DNA from: Parolsenella massiliensis | GTDB taxonomy: Bacteria; Actinomycetota; Coriobacteriia; Coriobacteriales; Atopobiaceae | Assembly (NCBI RefSeq): GCF_900143685.1 | Contig: NZ_LT671675.1 | Span: forward strand, 161,111 to 225,110 | DNA length: 64,000 bases | Direction: 5' to 3' | Shown: positions 55,027 to 64,000 of the stretch, piece by piece | Numbering within the stretch: position 1 is the stretch's first letter | Layout of the letters: each line of letters opens with the position of its first letter | Translations under genes and position numbers: made by a program | Notes under the pieces: generated by a model | What the model was told of the DNA's origin: nothing | The model's input: only the letters and a program-made list of their open reading frames with translations | The model's database searches: none

Positions 55027-55082
55027 GGGCATCGAAGGGCCCCGCTCCGTCCTCTGCGCCGAGCTCGGCTGTTGATTGTGCC

Positions 55083-55128
55083 AAACGCACCTTATTTTCG
55101 GCTTAATGCCTGATAATTAGGTGCGTTT
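55083..55128 (+). terminator. Imperfect hairpin after sbcC
   Basis: AAACGCACCT and AGGTGCGTTT are perfect 10-bp outer arms of a long hairpin whose inner part contains GGC-TTAAT-GCC. It may end sbcDC transcription. Only AAC follows, so the T-rich end of the arm itself would have to serve. Confidence 0.4.
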
Positions 55129-55164: not shown

Positions 55165-55257
55165 ACCACAACCGCGCGCCCAAGAGGGCGAGAGCGCTTT
55201 TGATCGCGTTCCAGCCGGGTCGGGACAATTCGATTGTCCTGGCTCGGCTTCTTTTTT
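55165..55257 (+). ncRNA. Copy A of the ACCACAACCGC element: candidate small RNA with its own terminator
   Basis: An extended -10, TGC-TACAAT (55153-55158), lies six bases before ACCACAACCGC (55165-55175). A small hairpin CGCCC-AAGA-GGGCG follows. A 17-bp stem (55213-55229 with 55233-55249) then a run of T form a strong intrinsic terminator. The result would be an RNA of about 93 nt. No open frame lies inside. The same start is seen in three other copies in the window. Confidence 0.6.
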
Positions 55258-55317
55258 CGATTGTTTAAAGACGAGGGTTTCCTGGCGTATATCGCAGTTT
55301 CCCGTGCATGCTAGTAT

Positions 55318-55461
55318 CGAGTAACCACAACCGCCCCTGAATCCAGGGCGCTCAAGCGCATAGACGAACCAGCGACTGGGAGGGCATCCGCCTTTTCTCG
55401 GACTGGTTCGCTGTTGCGACGAGTGCTGAGCGGTTGTGGTGACTGTGGCGGATGTCCTCCC
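55318..55461 (+). ncRNA. Copy B of the ACCACAACCGC element, with possible pseudoknot
   Basis: TGC-TAGTAT (55312-55317) lies six bases before ACCACAACCGC (55324-55334), which is followed by hairpin CCCTG-AATC-CAGGG. Its first 11 bases can pair with GCGGTTGTGGT (55430-55440). Inside, CGAACCAG (55365-55372) pairs with CTGGTTCG (55403-55410). The loop segment 55378-55392 is complementary, with one mismatch, to 55447-55461 beyond the outer stem. No terminator is obvious. Confidence 0.5.
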
Positions 55462-55514
55462 ATTCATCAAGATTAAATCTACTTCGTGAGACCGAACTCA
55501 TCTTTTAACAATCA

Positions 55515-55735
55515 AGTTTTTGGCCGTCTATCTCGCGTTTATTGCTATTTAGATACCTTTCAGGGATATGTGCTCCGATCCCGATTCGCTTGCTGCTATG
55601 GTGTGAATCACCACAACCGCGCCTGCTTGCAGGAGCACTCAACCCAATAGCCGCGAGCCTGTTGCCGGGGGATCTCTCTATCTCTCCAGCCTCATATCGC
55701 CCTATCTCGCTTTCGCGTGTGCGCGTTGGCTGTGG
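55515..55735 (+). promoter_or_regulatory. Leader with copy C, upstream of the multi-HTH/ParB/SNF2 operon
   Basis: The first 52 bases differ at only two positions from 62087-62138. Copy C has TGC-TATGGT (55597-55602), ACCACAACCGC (55610-55620) and hairpin CCTGCTTGCAGG. The rest up to TGTGG at 55735 is almost the same in both leaders. If the -10 is used, the operon mRNA has a 5' leader of about 150 nt. Confidence 0.65.
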
Positions 55736-55759
55736 ATGTATTTAGGGATAGGGGAAGCC

Positions 55760-58700
55760 ATGGCCAATGACCAAAGCTGGGAGTCAGCCTTCCTGGAGTT
55801 AAGCCTTCGCAACAAGATATATGAGGTGCTCGAGAAGGACGGCAGACCGTGCTCTGTCTGGCGGCTATATGGCATGCTGTTCGGTGACGTTCGGGCCGCA
55901 ATTCGGAACTCACTGGATGAGCTCCGTAAATCTGGCCTTGTGGCCGTCACGGATTCTGGCGGCTACATTGCGCTGCCGCGAGATGCGCGTCTCTCGACAG
56001 CGGCTCCAGAGGTCGAAGCGGCTCCAGAAGCCGCTGCCCGTGCGGCGCAACCTCTTGCCGTCAGGGTCCCGGAGGTTGGTTCCCGTGCAATGCGGCCCAC
56101 TGAGCGTGCCGAGCGAGAGACGCTATCCGGCTCGAATGGCGTCATAGATGCCCATGATAACGACGAGAGCTCCTCAGTTGCCCAGATTGCAACTAACTAT
56201 CAGACCGAGGCTCGCCTTAGTGACATTTCGCTTTCGATGACCGTGAACACGGATTCGGGGGAGCCGCTTACATCCGTTCCGGAGGCTTCTCCTTCATTTT
56301 CGGATGAGGAGGCAGAGCATCGACACGATAGCGTTTCGGCTGGGGAAGCTACCATACCCGTCGAGGCCGAGCCGAGCGGACCAAGCTGGAAACAAGTTAC
56401 TGACGCAATGTCGGCCGTTGAGCCGGAACTTGTTTCTGAACTCGGGCATTTTACGTTTAGAAAGGATGACGGAACGGCCGTCTTCCTCGAGCTCCCCTCG
56501 GAAGAGTGCACGTCGCTTTCAAGGATTCAGAGTAGTTATTGCGGAATCCTTTTGCTGCAGTCTATAGAACAAGTGTTTGGGCCAAGGCGCGTGGAAGTGC
56601 GTTCCGGACGTTACAGGCGCGCATTTAAGACACCTGGCTGGTCTCTTACGGCGCTTACTCAAACCATTGCGGACTCGATGAGGAGCGAGGAACGAGATGC
56701 GGAGATACCGACGCCCGGAACTGCACCCGCTCAAGAGCTAACGCACGAAATCGTTTCCGTTCAAGAGGAGACGCCAGGAACTGCTCCTGTTCAAGGGGCG
56801 ACGTCCGGAGTCACTTCCGCCCAAGACGAAGTGTCCCACTCCGCTTCCGGCAGGGCCTCCGACCTCCGTCCAAATAACGCTGGGGCCAAGACCGCCTCAA
56901 ACCCGCCAACGGTTGAAGAGTGGATCAGCACGCTCGATGACGACCGCGCCGAGATCCTGACGTGCCTGTTTAGTGGTGGCCGCGTTGCTACCCTGGCAAA
57001 GGCGAGGGATATCTCCCTAACCGAGGCGAGAAAGCTGAAAAAGGATGCCCTGGCGGGTAGACCGGTTCTTTTCGAAGATCGCTATCGCTATCTCTTCAGA
57101 ACGTATCGCATGTCAAGCGTGACACTCAAGCAGCTGACCGGGCTTGGTCGTCTGTCGTACGGATACCTGATGTTCCTTTACTCTCCTGGGTACAGGCCCC
57201 TTAGGCCTGACGCGCTTCAGGATATCTGTGTCCCACAAGAAATACGCGACAAACTGTCCGAGAAGAACGAAGAGACCAGGCACACCCCGCTTGGGATGGT
57301 GCGCGTCGACGGCGAGTACATCTCAAGGAACCGCACCAGTCTTCTGATCAAGTACGGAAAGCAATATGCCGCCAAACCGATGGGGGCTTCTTCATTCCGG
57401 CTTGGCTACAACGAGTTCCTCTCCCGGCTCTCGCTTGGCATGGGACCCGACATGAGCCTTCCCTCATCGTTGGCGGGCTTTACTTACTGCCTCGAAAGAA
57501 CGGGCTCGTACCTTGTGATCTCGAAGGATCATGTTAGGTACAGGCCGTACTCGGAATATGACTACAGGGCCTTGCGCGAGCTGCTTGGTACATATGTGTC
57601 TCGGAACATCGAATGCTCAACCGAGCTGCTATTTCGTGAGCACCCTGACCTGATGAAAGACCTCGACATCCTCGATGCCCAAGAGCTCCATGTCGTGATC
57701 AAACGCCTTCTGGACGAAGAGGACATAGAAGGAGTCCATCTCGAAAAACGCCCCGTTATCCGATTTGGAGAGGGGGACAGAAAGAGGCAGGCCATCGAGC
57801 TGATAAAGGAGATGGGCCCCTCGAGCGTGGATGAAGTTGCGGCGGAATACGAGAGCCGCTTTGGGAATTCCCCATCCTTCTTTAAGACTGCGGTCAAAAG
57901 GGAGATCTCAGCCTATTGCAAAAACGGACGCTTCGAATATCGAGAGACGGACATGAGCGCCGAGCAACGGGAGTATCTCCTGTCGCTGCTCGATAAGGAC
58001 TATCAGGCGCTCGATTTGGTCAAGGCGCAGTTCTCTGTTCGCTTTCCCGATATGAATGAGCTTGACGTAAACGACGAGGTGCTATCCGAGCTGGGCTACC
58101 ACGTTGACTGCGGCCTTGTGGTGAGAGATGGGGTAGAGCTCGGACCGGTATTTAGCAGACTCGTAAGGCAGAAGGAATCGTTTTCTATTCGCGACCCAGA
58201 CTTTGGCCCTGCGGTGCTGTCGCATCCTGAGTTTAGGAAGGTATTGAACAGGGGCCTCAACTCCTTGGAAATCGTAGAGATATCGAAGGATGAGTTTGTA
58301 CTTGTCAAGAAGCTAAAGAGAATCTTTGGAGTCACGAGGGCCGACCTGCTGGATTATGCAAATGAGGCCGGGAAAACGGCGCAACACGAGGCCCCTTTTA
58401 CCATCCACAGCCTGAGAAAAGAGGGATTCGTCCACAGGATTGACTCCCTGAGAGAAGATGCGGGTCTCGGAGACTGCATGTACGAGTCTCTGATCGCCCT
58501 ACTTCCCCAGTCGTATGGAATCAAGAGAACCGCCATGGGCGGAACCATGGTGTTCTGCAAGCTGAACCACAAGTTCTCGGCGGTCGACTTCTTGGAGCTT
58601 ATCGTGAAGTCGGAGGAAAGGATTGAGCTCGACGAGCTCATCGACCTTTTGCTGGATGAGTACGGAGTCTCAGTTCCAGAATCAACCCTTCGCCTTGCGA

Positions 58701-58828
58701 TTGACAGAGCCGTTGGCGAGGGGCGCCTCTTCTTCAATCAGAGCTTCCAGATGCTGCTGCCGAGCAAGGAAGCAAACCTCGAATTCCTGAGGGGCCTCAT
58801 TGACCAGCCGAAACAGGACCAGCAATGA
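55760..58828 (+). CDS. Large multi-HTH protein with sigma-region-4-like segment, function unknown
   Basis: A 1022-aa protein. Residues 1-75 look like a winged helix (LRNKIYEVLEKDGRPCSVWRLYGMLFG, GLVAVTDSGGYIALP). Residues 80-205 and 315-380 are disordered Ser/Glu/Thr linkers with degenerate PGTAPVQ repeats. Residues 210-300 resemble a DnaX tau-type domain (ELVSELGHFTFR, QVFGPRRVEVRSGRY). Residues 385-440 (DRAEILTCLFSG, then ISLTEARKLKKDAL) resemble sigma-70 region 4. The remainder contains repeated small helical domains. AGGGGAA precedes ATG 55760. It leads a three-gene operon overlapping a ParB-like gene. Codon use is less GC-rich than the core genes, which suggests transfer. I do not recognise the family. 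Confidence 0.7.
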   Translation: MANDQSWESAFLELSLRNKIYEVLEKDGRPCSVWRLYGMLFGDVRAAIRNSLDELRKSGLVAVTDSGGYIALPRDARLSTAAPEVEAAPEAAARAAQPLAVRVPEVGSRAMRPTERAERETLSGSNGVIDAHDNDESSSVAQIATNYQTEARLSDISLSMTVNTDSGEPLTSVPEASPSFSDEEAEHRHDSVSAGEATIPVEAEPSGPSWKQVTDAMSAVEPELVSELGHFTFRKDDGTAVFLELPSEECTSLSRIQSSYCGILLLQSIEQVFGPRRVEVRSGRYRRAFKTPGWSLTALTQTIADSMRSEERDAEIPTPGTAPAQELTHEIVSVQEETPGTAPVQGATSGVTSAQDEVSHSASGRASDLRPNNAGAKTASNPPTVEEWISTLDDDRAEILTCLFSGGRVATLAKARDISLTEARKLKKDALAGRPVLFEDRYRYLFRTYRMSSVTLKQLTGLGRLSYGYLMFLYSPGYRPLRPDALQDICVPQEIRDKLSEKNEETRHTPLGMVRVDGEYISRNRTSLLIKYGKQYAAKPMGASSFRLGYNEFLSRLSLGMGPDMSLPSSLAGFTYCLERTGSYLVISKDHVRYRPYSEYDYRALRELLGTYVSRNIECSTELLFREHPDLMKDLDILDAQELHVVIKRLLDEEDIEGVHLEKRPVIRFGEGDRKRQAIELIKEMGPSSVDEVAAEYESRFGNSPSFFKTAVKREISAYCKNGRFEYRETDMSAEQREYLLSLLDKDYQALDLVKAQFSVRFPDMNELDVNDEVLSELGYHVDCGLVVRDGVELGPVFSRLVRQKESFSIRDPDFGPAVLSHPEFRKVLNRGLNSLEIVEISKDEFVLVKKLKRIFGVTRADLLDYANEAGKTAQHEAPFTIHSLRKEGFVHRIDSLREDAGLGDCMYESLIALLPQSYGIKRTAMGGTMVFCKLNHKFSAVDFLELIVKSEERIELDELIDLLLDEYGVSVPESTLRLAIDRAVGEGRLFFNQSFQMLLPSKEANLEFLRGLIDQPKQDQQ

Positions 58829-60105
58829 GACATCAGAACAGTAGCCAAGAAGCGATGAAAGGATATGCAAAGATGAACCTGCTGACCATGGCCCAGGACC
58901 CCGCCTGTATTGACGTGGAGCCAACCGAGAGGCTTGAGAAGATGGTTCTTGAGGGGGAGCCCAAGAACTATCGCGTTTGTCGAATTAAGCTTGACCTGCT
59001 TAGGTACAACGAGCAGAACGACCGCATTGCCACTTTCATCAGCCGCTATAAGGCAGAGCATGGCGATGACTCGTTCGAGGGCCTTACCCAAGAGGAATAC
59101 AACTCTATCGTCCAGGACTTCATCGTTGAGAGTAATCCCGAGGCCATTAAGAAGACGAGGGGAAACATTGAGCTTCGAACGCAAGAGCGTCCCGGAGTCG
59201 TGCTGTCAAACGGTCTCGTGATTGATGGCAACCGTCGCTTTACCTGCTTGAGGCAGCTTGCGCAGAAGAACCCCAGCTTCGGGATGTTTGATGCCGTCAT
59301 CCTTCCCTATGAGGTGGGAAACGACCCTAAGCGTGTCAAGATTCTTGAGCTTTCCATCCAACATGCAACCGAGGAAAAAGTCGAGTATGACCTTATCGAC
59401 AAGCTCGTTGGCGTCTACCGCGACATTCTCGATCCCGAGACCAAACTTCTGACCGTTGAGGAATACGCGAAGTACGCCGACGCATCGCTCAAGGACGTTA
59501 GTTCGTGGATGCAGCTTGCCCAGTTCATGGTTGATTTCCTAGACTACGTTGGCCAACCCAAGCAGTTCCACATCGCGAGGGAGCTTTCTCTCGGAAGTCT
59601 GTTTCAAGAGATGCCGGCTATCCTCAAGAAGTGCTCCAGCAGCGAACAAGAGGAGCAGGTGAAGAACATCCTTTTTGCCAACCTCGTCATGTCTGCGGAA
59701 GGCGACCGAGTTCGAATCATCCGCCCGGTTAAGCAAGTCCTGACAAGCGAGAAGGCCGAAGAGTTCGTCGAGTGCGAGTCGGACCTCGCCGCCGAGGTTT
59801 GCGAGCGCCTCTCGATGGGCGACACGTCGTTTGACGAGCGCATCGCTGATGTGAGGGCGGATGCCGACCTTGCAGGGGAATTTAGAAGGACGCTTGACTC
59901 CGCAGTGTCAGCGGCTCGACGTGAGAAGGCCGTCTCTTCTCCGGCGGACGCAATCGAGAAGGCCATGCGCGACCTTATGCAGGTCGAGGAAGGCATCTTT
60001 GGCGAACTCGACTCGAATGAGCTGGCGACCGTTAAGCGAGGAGTTAGCGGACTCAAGAAGCGTCTTTCCGCAATTGAGGATGCCCTGCTTGCGGCGGAGC
60101 GGTAG
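58825..60105 (+). CDS. ParB/sulfiredoxin-like domain protein
   Basis: A 426-aa protein. Residues 50-150 fit the ParB N-terminal/Srx fold: VCRIKLDLLRYNEQNDR, a helical insert, then VVLSNGLVIDGNRRFTCLRQL with the G-N-R-R phosphate-binding motif at 135-138. In ParB this motif binds CTP; in other members it is a nuclease or kinase site. A central helical part follows (YAKYADASLKDVSSWMQLAQFMVDFL), as in ParB DNA-binding domains, then a charged C-terminus. The ATG overlaps the previous stop (ATGA); in-frame ATGs at 58855 and 58873 are alternatives. It should act with the multi-HTH protein and the helicase. Confidence 0.7.
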   Translation: MRHQNSSQEAMKGYAKMNLLTMAQDPACIDVEPTERLEKMVLEGEPKNYRVCRIKLDLLRYNEQNDRIATFISRYKAEHGDDSFEGLTQEEYNSIVQDFIVESNPEAIKKTRGNIELRTQERPGVVLSNGLVIDGNRRFTCLRQLAQKNPSFGMFDAVILPYEVGNDPKRVKILELSIQHATEEKVEYDLIDKLVGVYRDILDPETKLLTVEEYAKYADASLKDVSSWMQLAQFMVDFLDYVGQPKQFHIARELSLGSLFQEMPAILKKCSSSEQEEQVKNILFANLVMSAEGDRVRIIRPVKQVLTSEKAEEFVECESDLAAEVCERLSMGDTSFDERIADVRADADLAGEFRRTLDSAVSAARREKAVSSPADAIEKAMRDLMQVEEGIFGELDSNELATVKRGVSGLKKRLSAIEDALLAAER

Positions 60106-60108
60106 CTT

Positions 60109-62022
60109 ATGAAGTTCCGTCTTGGATGTAGCGAGGGAAGGCTTGCGCTGACCCTGGCCGATGAGCCCATCGAGAACTTTCTTGCCTCCTCTCTCTGGAA
60201 GGTCAGGCTTTCCTTTGCGAAGAGCAAGAGGCCTGAGCTCCATGGGCAGACGCTGCTGTTTCCTGCCGATCTGAGCATCGCCGACTGGCATAGAATCGCG
60301 GCTTCGCTTGAGGGCGCCTCGCGCTTTGGCGTGACAGTCGAGCATGACTCTAGCTTCGAGAAGGACGTCGCTTCGAATGGTGGGGACCTCGAGGAGCGGG
60401 CCCGTGTGGGCCTGTCCATCAAGGCGCATGATCCGGTTCTACTCGAGCGCTTTGAGGGTTTCTCGGAGACGGTCAACTCTCTGATGATCAGGCCTCTTCG
60501 CGAACGCCAAATGTGGGACGCCTTCTTCATGAGCGCAATGGGAAGCTCTGCGAACTTCTCGGTGCCGGGCTCGGGCAAGACCTCCGCAGTTCTTGGAGCG
60601 TTTGCATTCCTGCGTCAGAGAGGCGAGGTTGAACGAATCGTGGTCATTTCGCCCAAGAACGCATTTGGCTCGTGGCGAGATGAGTGGGCAGCCTGCTTTG
60701 GTAGGGCTGAGCCATGCCGTTCGTTGTGCTTTCACGACCGGAAATGGACGGGCGTTGATAGGGCTGGTCGACAGCGCGAGCTCCGCCTGGGCTATCGTGG
60801 CTACAACTTGATTCTGCTGAACTATGAGAGCGCAAACTATGGGGAGTCTCTTTATAAGGTCGTCAGGGACAAGTCTCTTCTCGTGTTCGATGAGGTCCAC
60901 AAGGTCAAGAGGGTCCATGGCAAGCGAGCGGAGGACGCACTTGCTGTGGCGCGGTGCGCCAAGTATGTGGTGGCGCTCACGGGTACGCCCATTCCCAACA
61001 GCTACCTCGATGTTTACAACCTTCTCCACATCCTCTATCCGGATGACTATGACTGGTACTTTGGCTTTAGGGAGCAGACGCTCAAGAAGGCCGACAAGGC
61101 GCTAGTCGAGAAGGTCAATGCCTCCATCCAGCCGTTCTTCTGCCGAACGAGTAAGAAGATGCTTGGGGTTCCGGAGCCCGAGCCGGACGATCTGGTGGCG
61201 GTGCCGGCGAGCGGCGAGGAGACAGAGGCCCTCCGCGAGCTCAAGGGATCGCTGGCACGTGACCCACTTGCGATGATCGTGCGCGTGCTCCAGCTTGAGA
61301 GCGACCAACGGATGCTCGAGGAGGACATCTCTTGGGATGACATCGAGGGACTCGTGGACGCGGCGGACGAGCAGAGCCTCGCCCAGCATCTCTCTGCTCC
61401 CATGACGCTTGTCAGCTCTGTCGGGGCGGGTGGCTCACCCGTGCTCTCGACAAAGACCAGGGCGTGCATCGACCTCGTCAGTCGGCTCTGTGGGGAGGGC
61501 AAGAAGGTAATCGTCTGGTGCATCTTCAAACGGAGCATGGCGAACATCTCGAGCCTGCTCAACGCTCGAGGTCACTCGACTCGCGTCGTGAGCGGGGCAA
61601 CCGGGATGGACGAGAGGCAGGAGATTCTCGACGACTTCAAGCTGGGTGGTCTTGAGGTGCTTGTCACCAACCCCCATACGCTTGCGGAGAGCGTCTCGCT
61701 CCATATGGTCTGCCATGATGCCGTTTACTTTGAGTGCAGCTATAACCTGGTACACCTGCTCCAGTCCAAGGATAGGATCAACAGGCTTGGCCTTCCGGAT
61801 GGGCAGTACACCCAGTATCACTTCCTGCAGTCAACGTTTTCTGTTCCCTCGGGAGCATGGTCGCTCGACCAGAACATCTACTCGCGTCTCTGCGAGAAGG
61901 AGCAGACGATGCTGGATGCGATCGACCGGGGCGTGCTCGAGCCTGGTTCGACCGACGAGAGGGACCTTGACCTGATTCTCGATGGACTGTTTGGAGATGA
62001 TGATGGACGGGTCTTGAGCTGA
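60109..62022 (+). CDS. SNF2-type superfamily 2 helicase/translocase
   Basis: A 637-aa protein. An N-terminal 120-residue region is specific to this family. Walker A is VPGSGKTS (152-159), motif Ia VVISPKNAFGSWRDEW, DEVH at 261-264, motif III VALTGTPIPNSYLD (from 288), motif IV KKVIVWCIFKRSMANI, motif V GLEVLVTNPHTLAESVSLH and motif VI LLQSKDRINRLGLPDG. The spacing is that of SNF2 translocases without a chromatin-like domain. It follows the ParB-like gene by three bases. A nuclease domain is not visible, so it may remodel or move along DNA for the other two products. Confidence 0.85.
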   Translation: MKFRLGCSEGRLALTLADEPIENFLASSLWKVRLSFAKSKRPELHGQTLLFPADLSIADWHRIAASLEGASRFGVTVEHDSSFEKDVASNGGDLEERARVGLSIKAHDPVLLERFEGFSETVNSLMIRPLRERQMWDAFFMSAMGSSANFSVPGSGKTSAVLGAFAFLRQRGEVERIVVISPKNAFGSWRDEWAACFGRAEPCRSLCFHDRKWTGVDRAGRQRELRLGYRGYNLILLNYESANYGESLYKVVRDKSLLVFDEVHKVKRVHGKRAEDALAVARCAKYVVALTGTPIPNSYLDVYNLLHILYPDDYDWYFGFREQTLKKADKALVEKVNASIQPFFCRTSKKMLGVPEPEPDDLVAVPASGEETEALRELKGSLARDPLAMIVRVLQLESDQRMLEEDISWDDIEGLVDAADEQSLAQHLSAPMTLVSSVGAGGSPVLSTKTRACIDLVSRLCGEGKKVIVWCIFKRSMANISSLLNARGHSTRVVSGATGMDERQEILDDFKLGGLEVLVTNPHTLAESVSLHMVCHDAVYFECSYNLVHLLQSKDRINRLGLPDGQYTQYHFLQSTFSVPSGAWSLDQNIYSRLCEKEQTMLDAIDRGVLEPGSTDERDLDLILDGLFGDDDGRVLS

Positions 62023-62086: not shown

Positions 62087-62305
62087 AGTTTTTGGCCGTT
62101 TACCTCGCGTTTATTGCTATTTAGATACCTTTCAGGGACGCATCCCCCGGTCTCAACCGGTTCGCTGCTATGTTGTGACTCACCACAACCGCGCCTGCTT
62201 GCAGGAGCACTCAATTCAATAGCCGCGAGCCTGTTGCCGGGGTCTCTCTATCTCTTCAGCCTCATATCGCCCTATCCCGCTTTCGCGTGCATGCGTTGGC
62301 TGTGG
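62087..62305 (+). promoter_or_regulatory. Leader with copy D, upstream of the McrB-like gene
   Basis: This is a near copy of 55515-55735. It contains TGC-TATGTT (62169-62174), ACCACAACCGC (62182-62192) and the same CCTGCTTGCAGG hairpin. The variable part (62139-62165) is the only section that differs strongly between the two leaders. It suggests that both operons share one control mechanism. Confidence 0.65.
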
Positions 62306-62347
62306 CTATGAACTAACGAGCCAAACAAGAGCTGAGGAGACGGGACT

Positions 62348-62616
62348 ATGCAAGTCGAGGGCTATGACGTTGCGATTCGCGTGCATATTACGGATGGGCT
62401 TGGGGTGGATACATCCAGGGCAAGATGTTGATCGGTCGACGGAATCTTATGCAGATTACCTCGCTCGATCAAGGGCCTCTCTGACTCGCTGGGCTCACGA
62501 TCTCCCAAATCTCGAACTCGAGCGATTCCAAAACCTCTTTCAGAACTTACGACGCAATCAGTGGGATACCAGTACCCGATGATGCTTGTCAAAAGACTCG
62601 ACCTGTTTGGTGGATA
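62348..62616 (+). pseudogene. Short open frames before the McrB-like gene, possibly a broken small gene
   Basis: GAGGAG precedes ATG 62348, which opens MQVEGYDVAIRVHITDGLGV and ends after 27 codons at 62429. The same frame then runs to a stop at 62614, two bases before the next gene. A second frame (62364-62582) encodes 72 residues ending DLPNLELERFQNLFQNLRRN. A good start signal with an early stop suggests a frameshifted or nonsense-mutated gene, but a real 27-aa leader peptide is also possible. Confidence 0.35.
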
Positions 62617-62617
62617 G

Positions 62618-64000
62618 ATGATCAGAATTAACGAATGGCTCGTTTACGCGGCACTGAGCCTTTTGAATGATAGAAATCCGGAACAAGGTGAATTCAGCCT
62701 CAAAACCGTCTACTTTTCGGAATCAGAACTTCTGCTTGAGGCGAACCGCCTCAACCCGGAAAGGAGAAGGGACCTGGTCTCGAAGGACTTCAAGGGGCTC
62801 GTCTTCAATGAGGCCGAGTCGCAGGGAGGCGATAGGTTCTTTGTACGTGGCCCGTCGAACATGTCGCTGAACTATCTCAGATTGGCCTCTAGGTCTGAGG
62901 CCGACTCTGCATATCTTGGAGTCTTTTCATCGTTTGATCTGGCTGAGCAGGGAGACCGCTCTTTCTTTCTGAACGGATGCCCTCTCGACGCGAATGGCCT
63001 GAGTGCTCTGCTTACGAGCTACTCGGACTTTGTCGAGAAGCAAAAGAGGGCGGGCATTCCTCGTCAGCCGCACTGCAACCTGTCTCCCCAGTGGTCGATC
63101 TATCTTGCTGCCGCCTCGTTTGCCCTTAACGAATTTCTTAGGACGGGGTCAGTGGACGAGGCGTCGTACTGGTTTATCCAGAAGCCAATCGTGGCCGAGG
63201 CAAAACAGCTGTATGGAAGAGAGAACACTTCGTTTCAGGTGTTTATCTCGTCAGCCTTTGCTGACGGGTCGTCAGCGGCTTATAGGTCATATTTCCTGCG
63301 CGGCAGCGAGTTCCAGATGAGAAGACTGTCTTGCCGAGCGGACGAAACCAAGGACGAGAAACGCCCGACTGATCCTCTTGACGACACTCAGATGATCCTG
63401 ACGTTTGACGGCCTGGTTCCGATACGGGAAGTGCTTGAGTTTGTTGACAATGAATACTCAAGCATCATGGAGAATGGCTCTCTCGGGAGCAGAACGGCAT
63501 TTCATTTCACGAGCCCTGGGGCAGACGAAGGGTCGGAAATGTCCGACGAGGAGTCGCTCGGGGCATCTTTGCGCACAACGCCCACTCCCGAAGAGTCTGC
63601 GCAGGCGGGGAATTATGACGACGCGAGCTTTCTCGGTGAAGTCTACATGACCGCTCCCGAGCTGGCTGCGATGCGACGCCTTCTCTTTCGAAAGAAATGT
63701 CTGGTGTTGCAGGGACCTCCTGGTGTTGGTAAGACCTTCTCTGCGACGAGGCTTGCGTACAACATCTTGGGGTCTCGAGACCCCTCGAGAGTGACCATGA
63801 TACAGATGCATCAGAACTACTCGTACGAGGAGTTCATTGAAGGATACTGCCCTACCGAAAACGGATTTGCGCTCAAGGACGGTGTATTGCTTCGTACCTG
63901 TGATGCCGCGAGAGAGGAACCGGATAGGCCGTTCTTTCTGATAATTGACGAAATGAACCGCGGCAATATGAGCAGAGTTTTCGGAGAATCATTTCTCCTG
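62618..64000 (+). CDS. McrB-like AAA+ GTPase, 3' end outside the window
   Basis: 461 codons are open to the window end. The N-terminal 330 residues have no recognised domain and may bind DNA (start MIRINEWLVYAALSLLNDRN). A short acidic linker leads to the AAA+ motor: YMTAPELAAMRRLLFRKKCLVLQGPPGVGKTF (Walker A 366-373), MIQMHQNYSYEEFIEGYCP and LIIDEMNRGNMSRVFGE (Walker B and the McrB-type N-R-G-N from 442). McrB with McrC cuts modified DNA; a mcrC gene would be expected downstream, outside the window. The gene directly follows the fragment above and shares its leader type with the operon upstream. Confidence 0.8.
   Translation, partial: MIRINEWLVYAALSLLNDRNPEQGEFSLKTVYFSESELLLEANRLNPERRRDLVSKDFKGLVFNEAESQGGDRFFVRGPSNMSLNYLRLASRSEADSAYLGVFSSFDLAEQGDRSFFLNGCPLDANGLSALLTSYSDFVEKQKRAGIPRQPHCNLSPQWSIYLAAASFALNEFLRTGSVDEASYWFIQKPIVAEAKQLYGRENTSFQVFISSAFADGSSAAYRSYFLRGSEFQMRRLSCRADETKDEKRPTDPLDDTQMILTFDGLVPIREVLEFVDNEYSSIMENGSLGSRTAFHFTSPGADEGSEMSDEESLGASLRTTPTPEESAQAGNYDDASFLGEVYMTAPELAAMRRLLFRKKCLVLQGPPGVGKTFSATRLAYNILGSRDPSRVTMIQMHQNYSYEEFIEGYCPTENGFALKDGVLLRTCDAAREEPDRPFFLIIDEMNRGNMSRVFGESFLL

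What the first reader, a model, noticed from the sequence alone, without database searches (positions are those of the whole stretch)
55312..55461. Copy B can fold into a pseudoknot with an 11-bp closing stem and a 15-nt loop-tail helix
The 5' ACCACAACCGC pairs exactly with GCGGTTGTGGT 96 bases later. An inner stem (55365-55372 with 55403-55410) holds a loop whose segment 55378-55392 pairs with 55447-55461 lying beyond the closing stem. The reverse-strand part also reads as an inverted partial copy of the element (ACCACAACCGC then AGCACTC). This could be a switch between two folds, a guide-like RNA, or an RNA antitoxin.
Basis: seen in the sequence. Interest (0 to 1): 0.7.

Follow-up and report, generated by a model that had tools for sequence, protein, structure and literature searches.

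The report
Folded RNA in a defence-gene island
A bacterium carries four copies of a short RNA start sequence in front of, and between, two phage-defence-type operons, and one copy can fold into an unusually stable hairpin that also holds a mirror-image copy able to pair with the other two operons' RNAs, so it may be a small RNA that controls them; this is untested and so far seen in one genome only.

Summary
The 117-nt core folds at z = -7. Copy B belongs to a four-member family (A, B, C, D), found in this genome only (none in 396 other genomes of the order). Each copy lies 7-8 nt after an extended -10 box TGCTAnnnT, so each is probably the 5' end of a transcript. C and D are leaders of two different operons (sigma-like/ParB-like/SNF2 helicase; McrBC); A ends in a strong terminator. 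Shared parts are block 1 ACCACAACCGC, a hairpin (with compensating changes in A) and block 2 GCRCTY. The closing stem and loop-tail helix are peculiar to B: A lacks both, C and D have only a weak stem (p about 0.1). B's 3' arm is an exact 20-nt complement of both blocks of C and D, better than of B itself. Best guess: B is a structured RNA that controls the two operons by pairing with their leaders (0.38). Guide and retron readings are disfavoured: no Cas1 or reverse transcriptase in the genome.

The parts
55312..55317 (+). -10-like box TAGTAT of copy B, extended (TGC before it)
   Evidence: TGCTAnnnT occurs 7 times on the + strand of the window, 4 of them just before the four elements
55324..55334 (+). 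Copy B, block 1 ACCACAACCGC (5' arm of closing stem)
55335..55348 (+). Copy B small hairpin CCCTG-AATC-CAGGG
55348..55353 (+). Copy B block 2 GCGCTC, can pair with GAGTGC 55421-55426 in the predicted fold
55365..55372 (+). Inner stem 5' arm CGAACCAG, pairs with 55403-55410
55378..55392 (+). Loop segment GGGAGGGCATCCGCC, complementary to 55447-55461
55403..55410 (+). Inner stem 3' arm CTGGTTCG
55421..55442 (-). Inverted, hairpin-less element copy; as RNA of the + strand GAGTGCT-GA-GCGGTTGTGGTGA, exact complement (7 + 13 nt) of both blocks of C and D and 3' arm of B's closing stem
55447..55461 (+). Tail segment of the loop-tail helix
55153..55158 (+). -10-like box TACAAT of copy A (extended)
55165..55199 (+). 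Copy A element: ACCACAACCGC, hairpin CGCCC-AAGA-GGGCG (55177-55190), AGCGCTT
55213..55257 (+). Intrinsic terminator closing copy A (17-pair stem, T tract), making A a likely stand-alone RNA of about 90 nt
55597..55602 (+). -10-like box TATGGT of copy C (extended)
55610..55735 (+). Copy C: element (55610-55640) and leader of the sigma-like/ParB-like/SNF2 operon; 87% identical to D although the genes differ
55736..58828 (+). Operon gene 1, 1030 aa; relatives carry sigma-70 region 4 and RNA polymerase alpha-CTD-like domains
58825..60105 (+). Operon gene 2, 426 aa, ParB-like by my reading of the sequence, no family hit
60109..62022 (+). Operon gene 3, SNF2-type helicase, 637 aa
62169..62174 (+). 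-10-like box TATGTT of copy D (extended)
62182..62307 (+). Copy D: element (62182-62212) and leader upstream of the McrBC genes that begin at about 62618 and run beyond the window

Best explanation
Copy B most likely specifies a structured non-coding RNA, one of four transcripts in the island that start with the same 5' element. Its 3' arm (55421-55442) is antisense to the 5' ends of the two defence-type operon mRNAs (C and D). It probably tunes their expression by RNA-RNA pairing around the leader hairpin, with the closed, pseudoknot-capable form as its stable or inactive state. Shown: the sequences, the possible helices, the complementarity, the -10-like boxes and the absence elsewhere. Inferred: that it is transcribed, that the arm is ever released from its own 5' end, and that pairing changes expression of C and D.
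For: Four elements lie at a fixed 7-8 nt from an extended -10 box, though outside the element A and B share little with C and D. Hairpin geometry is kept in A with different bases, which favours RNA over DNA. B has z = -7. The arm pairs with C and D at -34.4 kcal/mol over 13 + 7 perfect pairs, more than with B's own element (-30.4) or A (-31.6). The matched blocks of C and D are mostly unpaired when the whole leader up to the start codon is folded, except the last bases of block 1. The island is absent from the sister species, where sbcC is followed directly by the aminotransferase gene.
Against: B's arm is covered by B's own 5' element in the predicted fold, an intramolecular helix that is hard to open; full-length B with C or D gains only 8-12 kcal/mol, no more than C with C or D with D. 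No terminator was found after B, so it may be a leader read through into C. No expression data and no homologue of B exist in the collections searched. The pairing site is over 100 nt from the start codon, so an effect on translation would be indirect. A shorter C or D leader (ending before the start codon) can close block 1 by a weak stem.
Confidence: 0.38

Rival explanations
1. The 5' element (two single-stranded blocks round a hairpin) is a cis tag bound by a protein or a ligand in all four transcripts. A and B are stand-alone decoys or solo leaders whose genes were lost; B's inverted half only stabilises it.
For: Element conserved in all four at the inferred transcript start, with compensating hairpin change in A; A has no antisense arm and ends at a terminator.
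Against: Does not explain why the inverted copy in B matches C and D at all 20 positions, better than B itself; no candidate binding protein identified.
Confidence: 0.27
2. B is an inverted duplication of the leader start (a hairpin by accident of recombination) with no function of its own; C and D are a recent promoter-leader duplication and A and B older relics.
For: B's two halves align as diverged inverted copies; C and D are 87% identical over 239 bp with unrelated genes; the island is missing from the sister species.
Against: A decayed duplicate would not be expected to keep 11 + 7 exact inverted positions, a -10 box, and a crossing 15-nt helix (0 of 4000 shuffles).
Confidence: 0.22
3. 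The element is DNA: an operator of a repressor or activator overlapping the start of transcription, with B carrying a second, inverted site.
For: Fixed distance to the -10 box in all copies; the inverted copy differs in block spacing by 11 bp from C and D, about one helical turn.
Against: Block spacing is 12-13 in B, C and D but 17 in A; a hairpin keeps its geometry with changed bases in A, not expected of an operator.
Confidence: 0.13

Closest known systems
SymR, antisense RNA of symE in E. coli (PMC1891008)
   Same: An RNA fully complementary to the 5' end of the mRNA of a neighbouring toxic gene, controlling its translation and stability.
   Different: SymR is encoded opposite its one target; here the arm sits in a separate, self-complementary RNA on the same strand and matches two leaders; no expression data here.
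CreA/CreT, CRISPR-regulated toxin-antitoxin (PMC8501985)
   Same: Small RNA with repeat-like parts beside defence genes.
   Different: CreA guides a CRISPR effector; no Cas1 was found in this genome.
Retron ncRNA (from my own knowledge)
   Same: 5' and 3' ends closed by an inverted repeat of about 11 nt round inner hairpins, in a defence island.
   Different: No reverse transcriptase anywhere in the genome.
Type III antitoxin RNAs such as ToxI (from my own knowledge)
   Same: Pseudoknot-capable RNA ahead of a gene in a defence setting.
   Different: No tandem repeats of the RNA, no ToxN-like gene, and 11 + 15 bp helices with a long rod instead of a small pseudoknot.

Membership tests
Antisense regulatory RNA (SymR-like) | Extended complementarity to the 5' region of a target mRNA | tested here: met
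   13 + 7 exact pairs with C and D leaders, -34.4 kcal/mol
Antisense regulatory RNA (SymR-like) | Transcribed, and target expression changes with it | not testable with these tools
   No RNA data; only -10-like boxes
Retron ncRNA | Reverse transcriptase encoded in cis | tested here: not met
   No RVT_1 match in the whole genome; control genomes ring
CRISPR/CreA guide RNA | CRISPR-Cas machinery in the genome | tested here: not met
   No Cas1 match in the genome; an effector without Cas1 was not searched for
Any Rfam family | Score at or above the gathering threshold | tested here: not met
   Only rRNAs in the window; only chance-level hits at E up to 5 in the two leader regions
Type III toxin-antitoxin RNA | Tandem RNA repeats followed by a ToxN/AbiQ/CptN/TenpN-type gene | tested here: not met
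   No such gene next to it; repeats are dispersed and not in tandem
   A has neither; C and D have at most a weak closing stem, p about 0.08-0.12, and no loop-tail helix; no outside homologue of B

The most novel reading that the evidence does not exclude
A single small RNA, made of one leader element and its own antisense copy, coordinates two unrelated defence systems of one island (McrBC and the sigma-like/ParB-like/SNF2 operon) through identical 5' leader elements, switching between a self-closed pseudoknotted form and a leader-bound form.
Probability: 0.17. Interest if true: 0.75.

Novelty: new variant of a known kind. Interest (0 to 1): 0.42.

Why it matters
If true, it would show that different defence operons in one island can be put under a shared RNA control by carrying the same short leader, a simple way to keep costly defence genes in check together. 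It also gives a clear mutational test, since 20 defined bases in B should answer to 20 defined bases in two leaders.

Tried and rejected
Rfam at gathering and loose thresholds: nothing. Pattern scan in the family's genomes gave matches without the hairpin, at a rate like that of the control pattern; the viral scan with the loose pattern was noise and with the tight pattern empty. Covariance model over 140 family and 397 order genomes: only the four own copies score well; family hits at E 0.016-0.05 are at chance level for 140 genomes. blastn in phages and plasmids: none. Upstream regions of relatives of the helicase operon and of McrBC loci in other genomes: no shared leader with an extended -10, while the same script recovers all six pairs of A, B, C and D. 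The repeat pair beside the Selenomonas operon is a palindrome lying away from the operon's start. Coding in the leaders: open frames across C and D are broken by a 2-nt indel and the changes alter residues; the reverse ORF over A and B has no family. Protein-coding, CRISPR and retron readings were rejected.

Full report
What was checked. The closing stem is 11 Watson-Crick pairs (55324-55334 with 55430-55440), the inner stem 8 pairs, the loop-tail helix 15 pairs with one G-U (16 if extended). Among 4000 dinucleotide shuffles of 55312-55465, three had a Watson-Crick stem of 11 or more, eleven a stem of 15 or more with G-U, and none had both crossing. The 117 nt from the first to the last base of the closing stem fold at -64.8 kcal/mol against -40.4 +/- 3.5, z = -7.0.

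What B is part of. The window is part of a 2.0-Mb genome (G000:C1:161111-225110). B lies between sbcC (ends 55026) and a three-gene operon. Block 1 occurs four times in forward orientation in the genome together with block 2: A 55165, B 55324, C 55610, D 62182. All four stand 7-8 nt after an extended -10 box TGCTAnnnT; that pattern occurs only 7 times on this strand of the window, and 4 of them are these. No -35 match was found, so the promoters are inferred from the extended -10 and the fixed spacing. The element is block 1 ACCACAACCGC, a 4-5-bp hairpin with a 4-nt loop, and block 2 GCRCTY. The hairpin is CGCCC-AAGA-GGGCG in A, CCCTG-AATC-CAGGG in B and CCTG-CTTG-CAGG in C and D: three of the pairs differ on both sides between A and the others. 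This is one comparison and not a covariation analysis, and A's whole-RNA minimum-energy fold uses other pairs, but it points to RNA.

Surroundings. C and D are 87% identical over 239 bp, from an upstream block through the leader, and the similarity ends just before the genes, which differ: C precedes a sigma-like protein, a ParB-like protein and an SNF2 helicase; D precedes McrB and McrC. A ends in a 17-pair terminator with a T tract. In the sister species sbcC is followed after about 100 bases by the aminotransferase gene that lies beyond the island here, so about 11 kb, with all four elements, is an insertion here or a loss in the sister. The three-gene operon is widespread (other genomes of the family, Selenomonas, plasmids of Enterococcus and lactobacilli), but none of the relatives inspected carries the leader element. 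The element thus belongs to this island and not to the operon.

Peculiarity of B. Its first 50 nt align with C and D (beyond block 2 the similarity is marginal, p = 0.04). Its second half is an inverted copy of the same stretch without the hairpin. The arm, GAGTGCT-GA-GCGGTTGTGGTGA, is the exact complement of 13 + 7 bases of C and D; against B itself it has 11 pairs plus a second block with G-U pairs. Duplex energies are -34.4 (C, D), -31.6 (A) and -30.4 (B). In the predicted folds of C and D most of block 1 and block 2 is unpaired. Against a simple antisense action, B's own 5' end covers the arm, and full-length co-folding of B with C gains 11.8 kcal/mol, the same as C with C. The loop-tail helix is strong (-35.9 kcal/mol) and would repay the roughly 18 kcal/mol needed to free both segments (before any pseudoknot penalty); a length count suggests it can just be reached in the same molecule, which is an estimate and not a model.

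Is the fold conserved? No homologue of B was found: covariance model over 140 family and 397 order genomes, blastn in family genomes, phages and plasmids, pattern scans of viral contigs. Among the paralogues, A has no partner for block 1 (p = 0.25) and C and D have a weak one at the end of the leader (p = 0.12 and 0.08; leader folds z about -0.5).

Verdict. Best explanation, at 0.38: B is a structured RNA that can pair with the leaders of the two defence-type operons and control them. Rivals are a shared protein- or ligand-binding 5' tag with A and B as decoys or solo leaders (0.27), a functionless inverted duplication (0.22), and a DNA operator (0.13). Guide RNA and retron RNA are disfavoured by the absence of Cas1 and reverse transcriptase. 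Literature searches found no report of such a shared leader, but the library is partial. [quoted passage not shown]

Noticed in passing
window 55736-62022: Three-gene operon (protein with sigma-70 region 4/RNA polymerase alpha-CTD-like parts in relatives, ParB-like protein, SNF2 helicase) without a named family; relatives in the same order in Selenomonas, in other genomes of the family and on plasmids (66 plasmid records match gene 2, mostly Enterococcus). Looks like an unnamed defence-type system.
   Followed up: partly
L051 7200-9794: In Selenomonas bovis the helicase of this operon is 864 aa, with an extra N-terminal part of over 200 aa that reads like a phospholipase-D-type nuclease (by eye, not tested).
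   Followed up: no
window 55074-55128: Palindrome TGCCAAACGCACCT...AGGTGCGTTTAAC; a similar intergenic palindrome occurs at G000:C1:1491391 and twice in the sister species, a dispersed repeat unrelated to the finding.
   Followed up: partly
window 62350-62620: Between leader D and mcrB lies a short, apparently decayed reading frame beginning MQVEGYDVAIRVHITDGLGVDTSRA.
   Followed up: no
window 55519-55568 and 62091-62140: A 50-bp block upstream of C and D is nearly identical, then about 30 bp up to the -10 box have diverged without a length change: a possible second control site.
   Followed up: no
G000:C1:1103464-1104015 (L201): A second fragment of a related helicase (55% identity to the C-terminal part) elsewhere in the same genome.
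   Followed up: no
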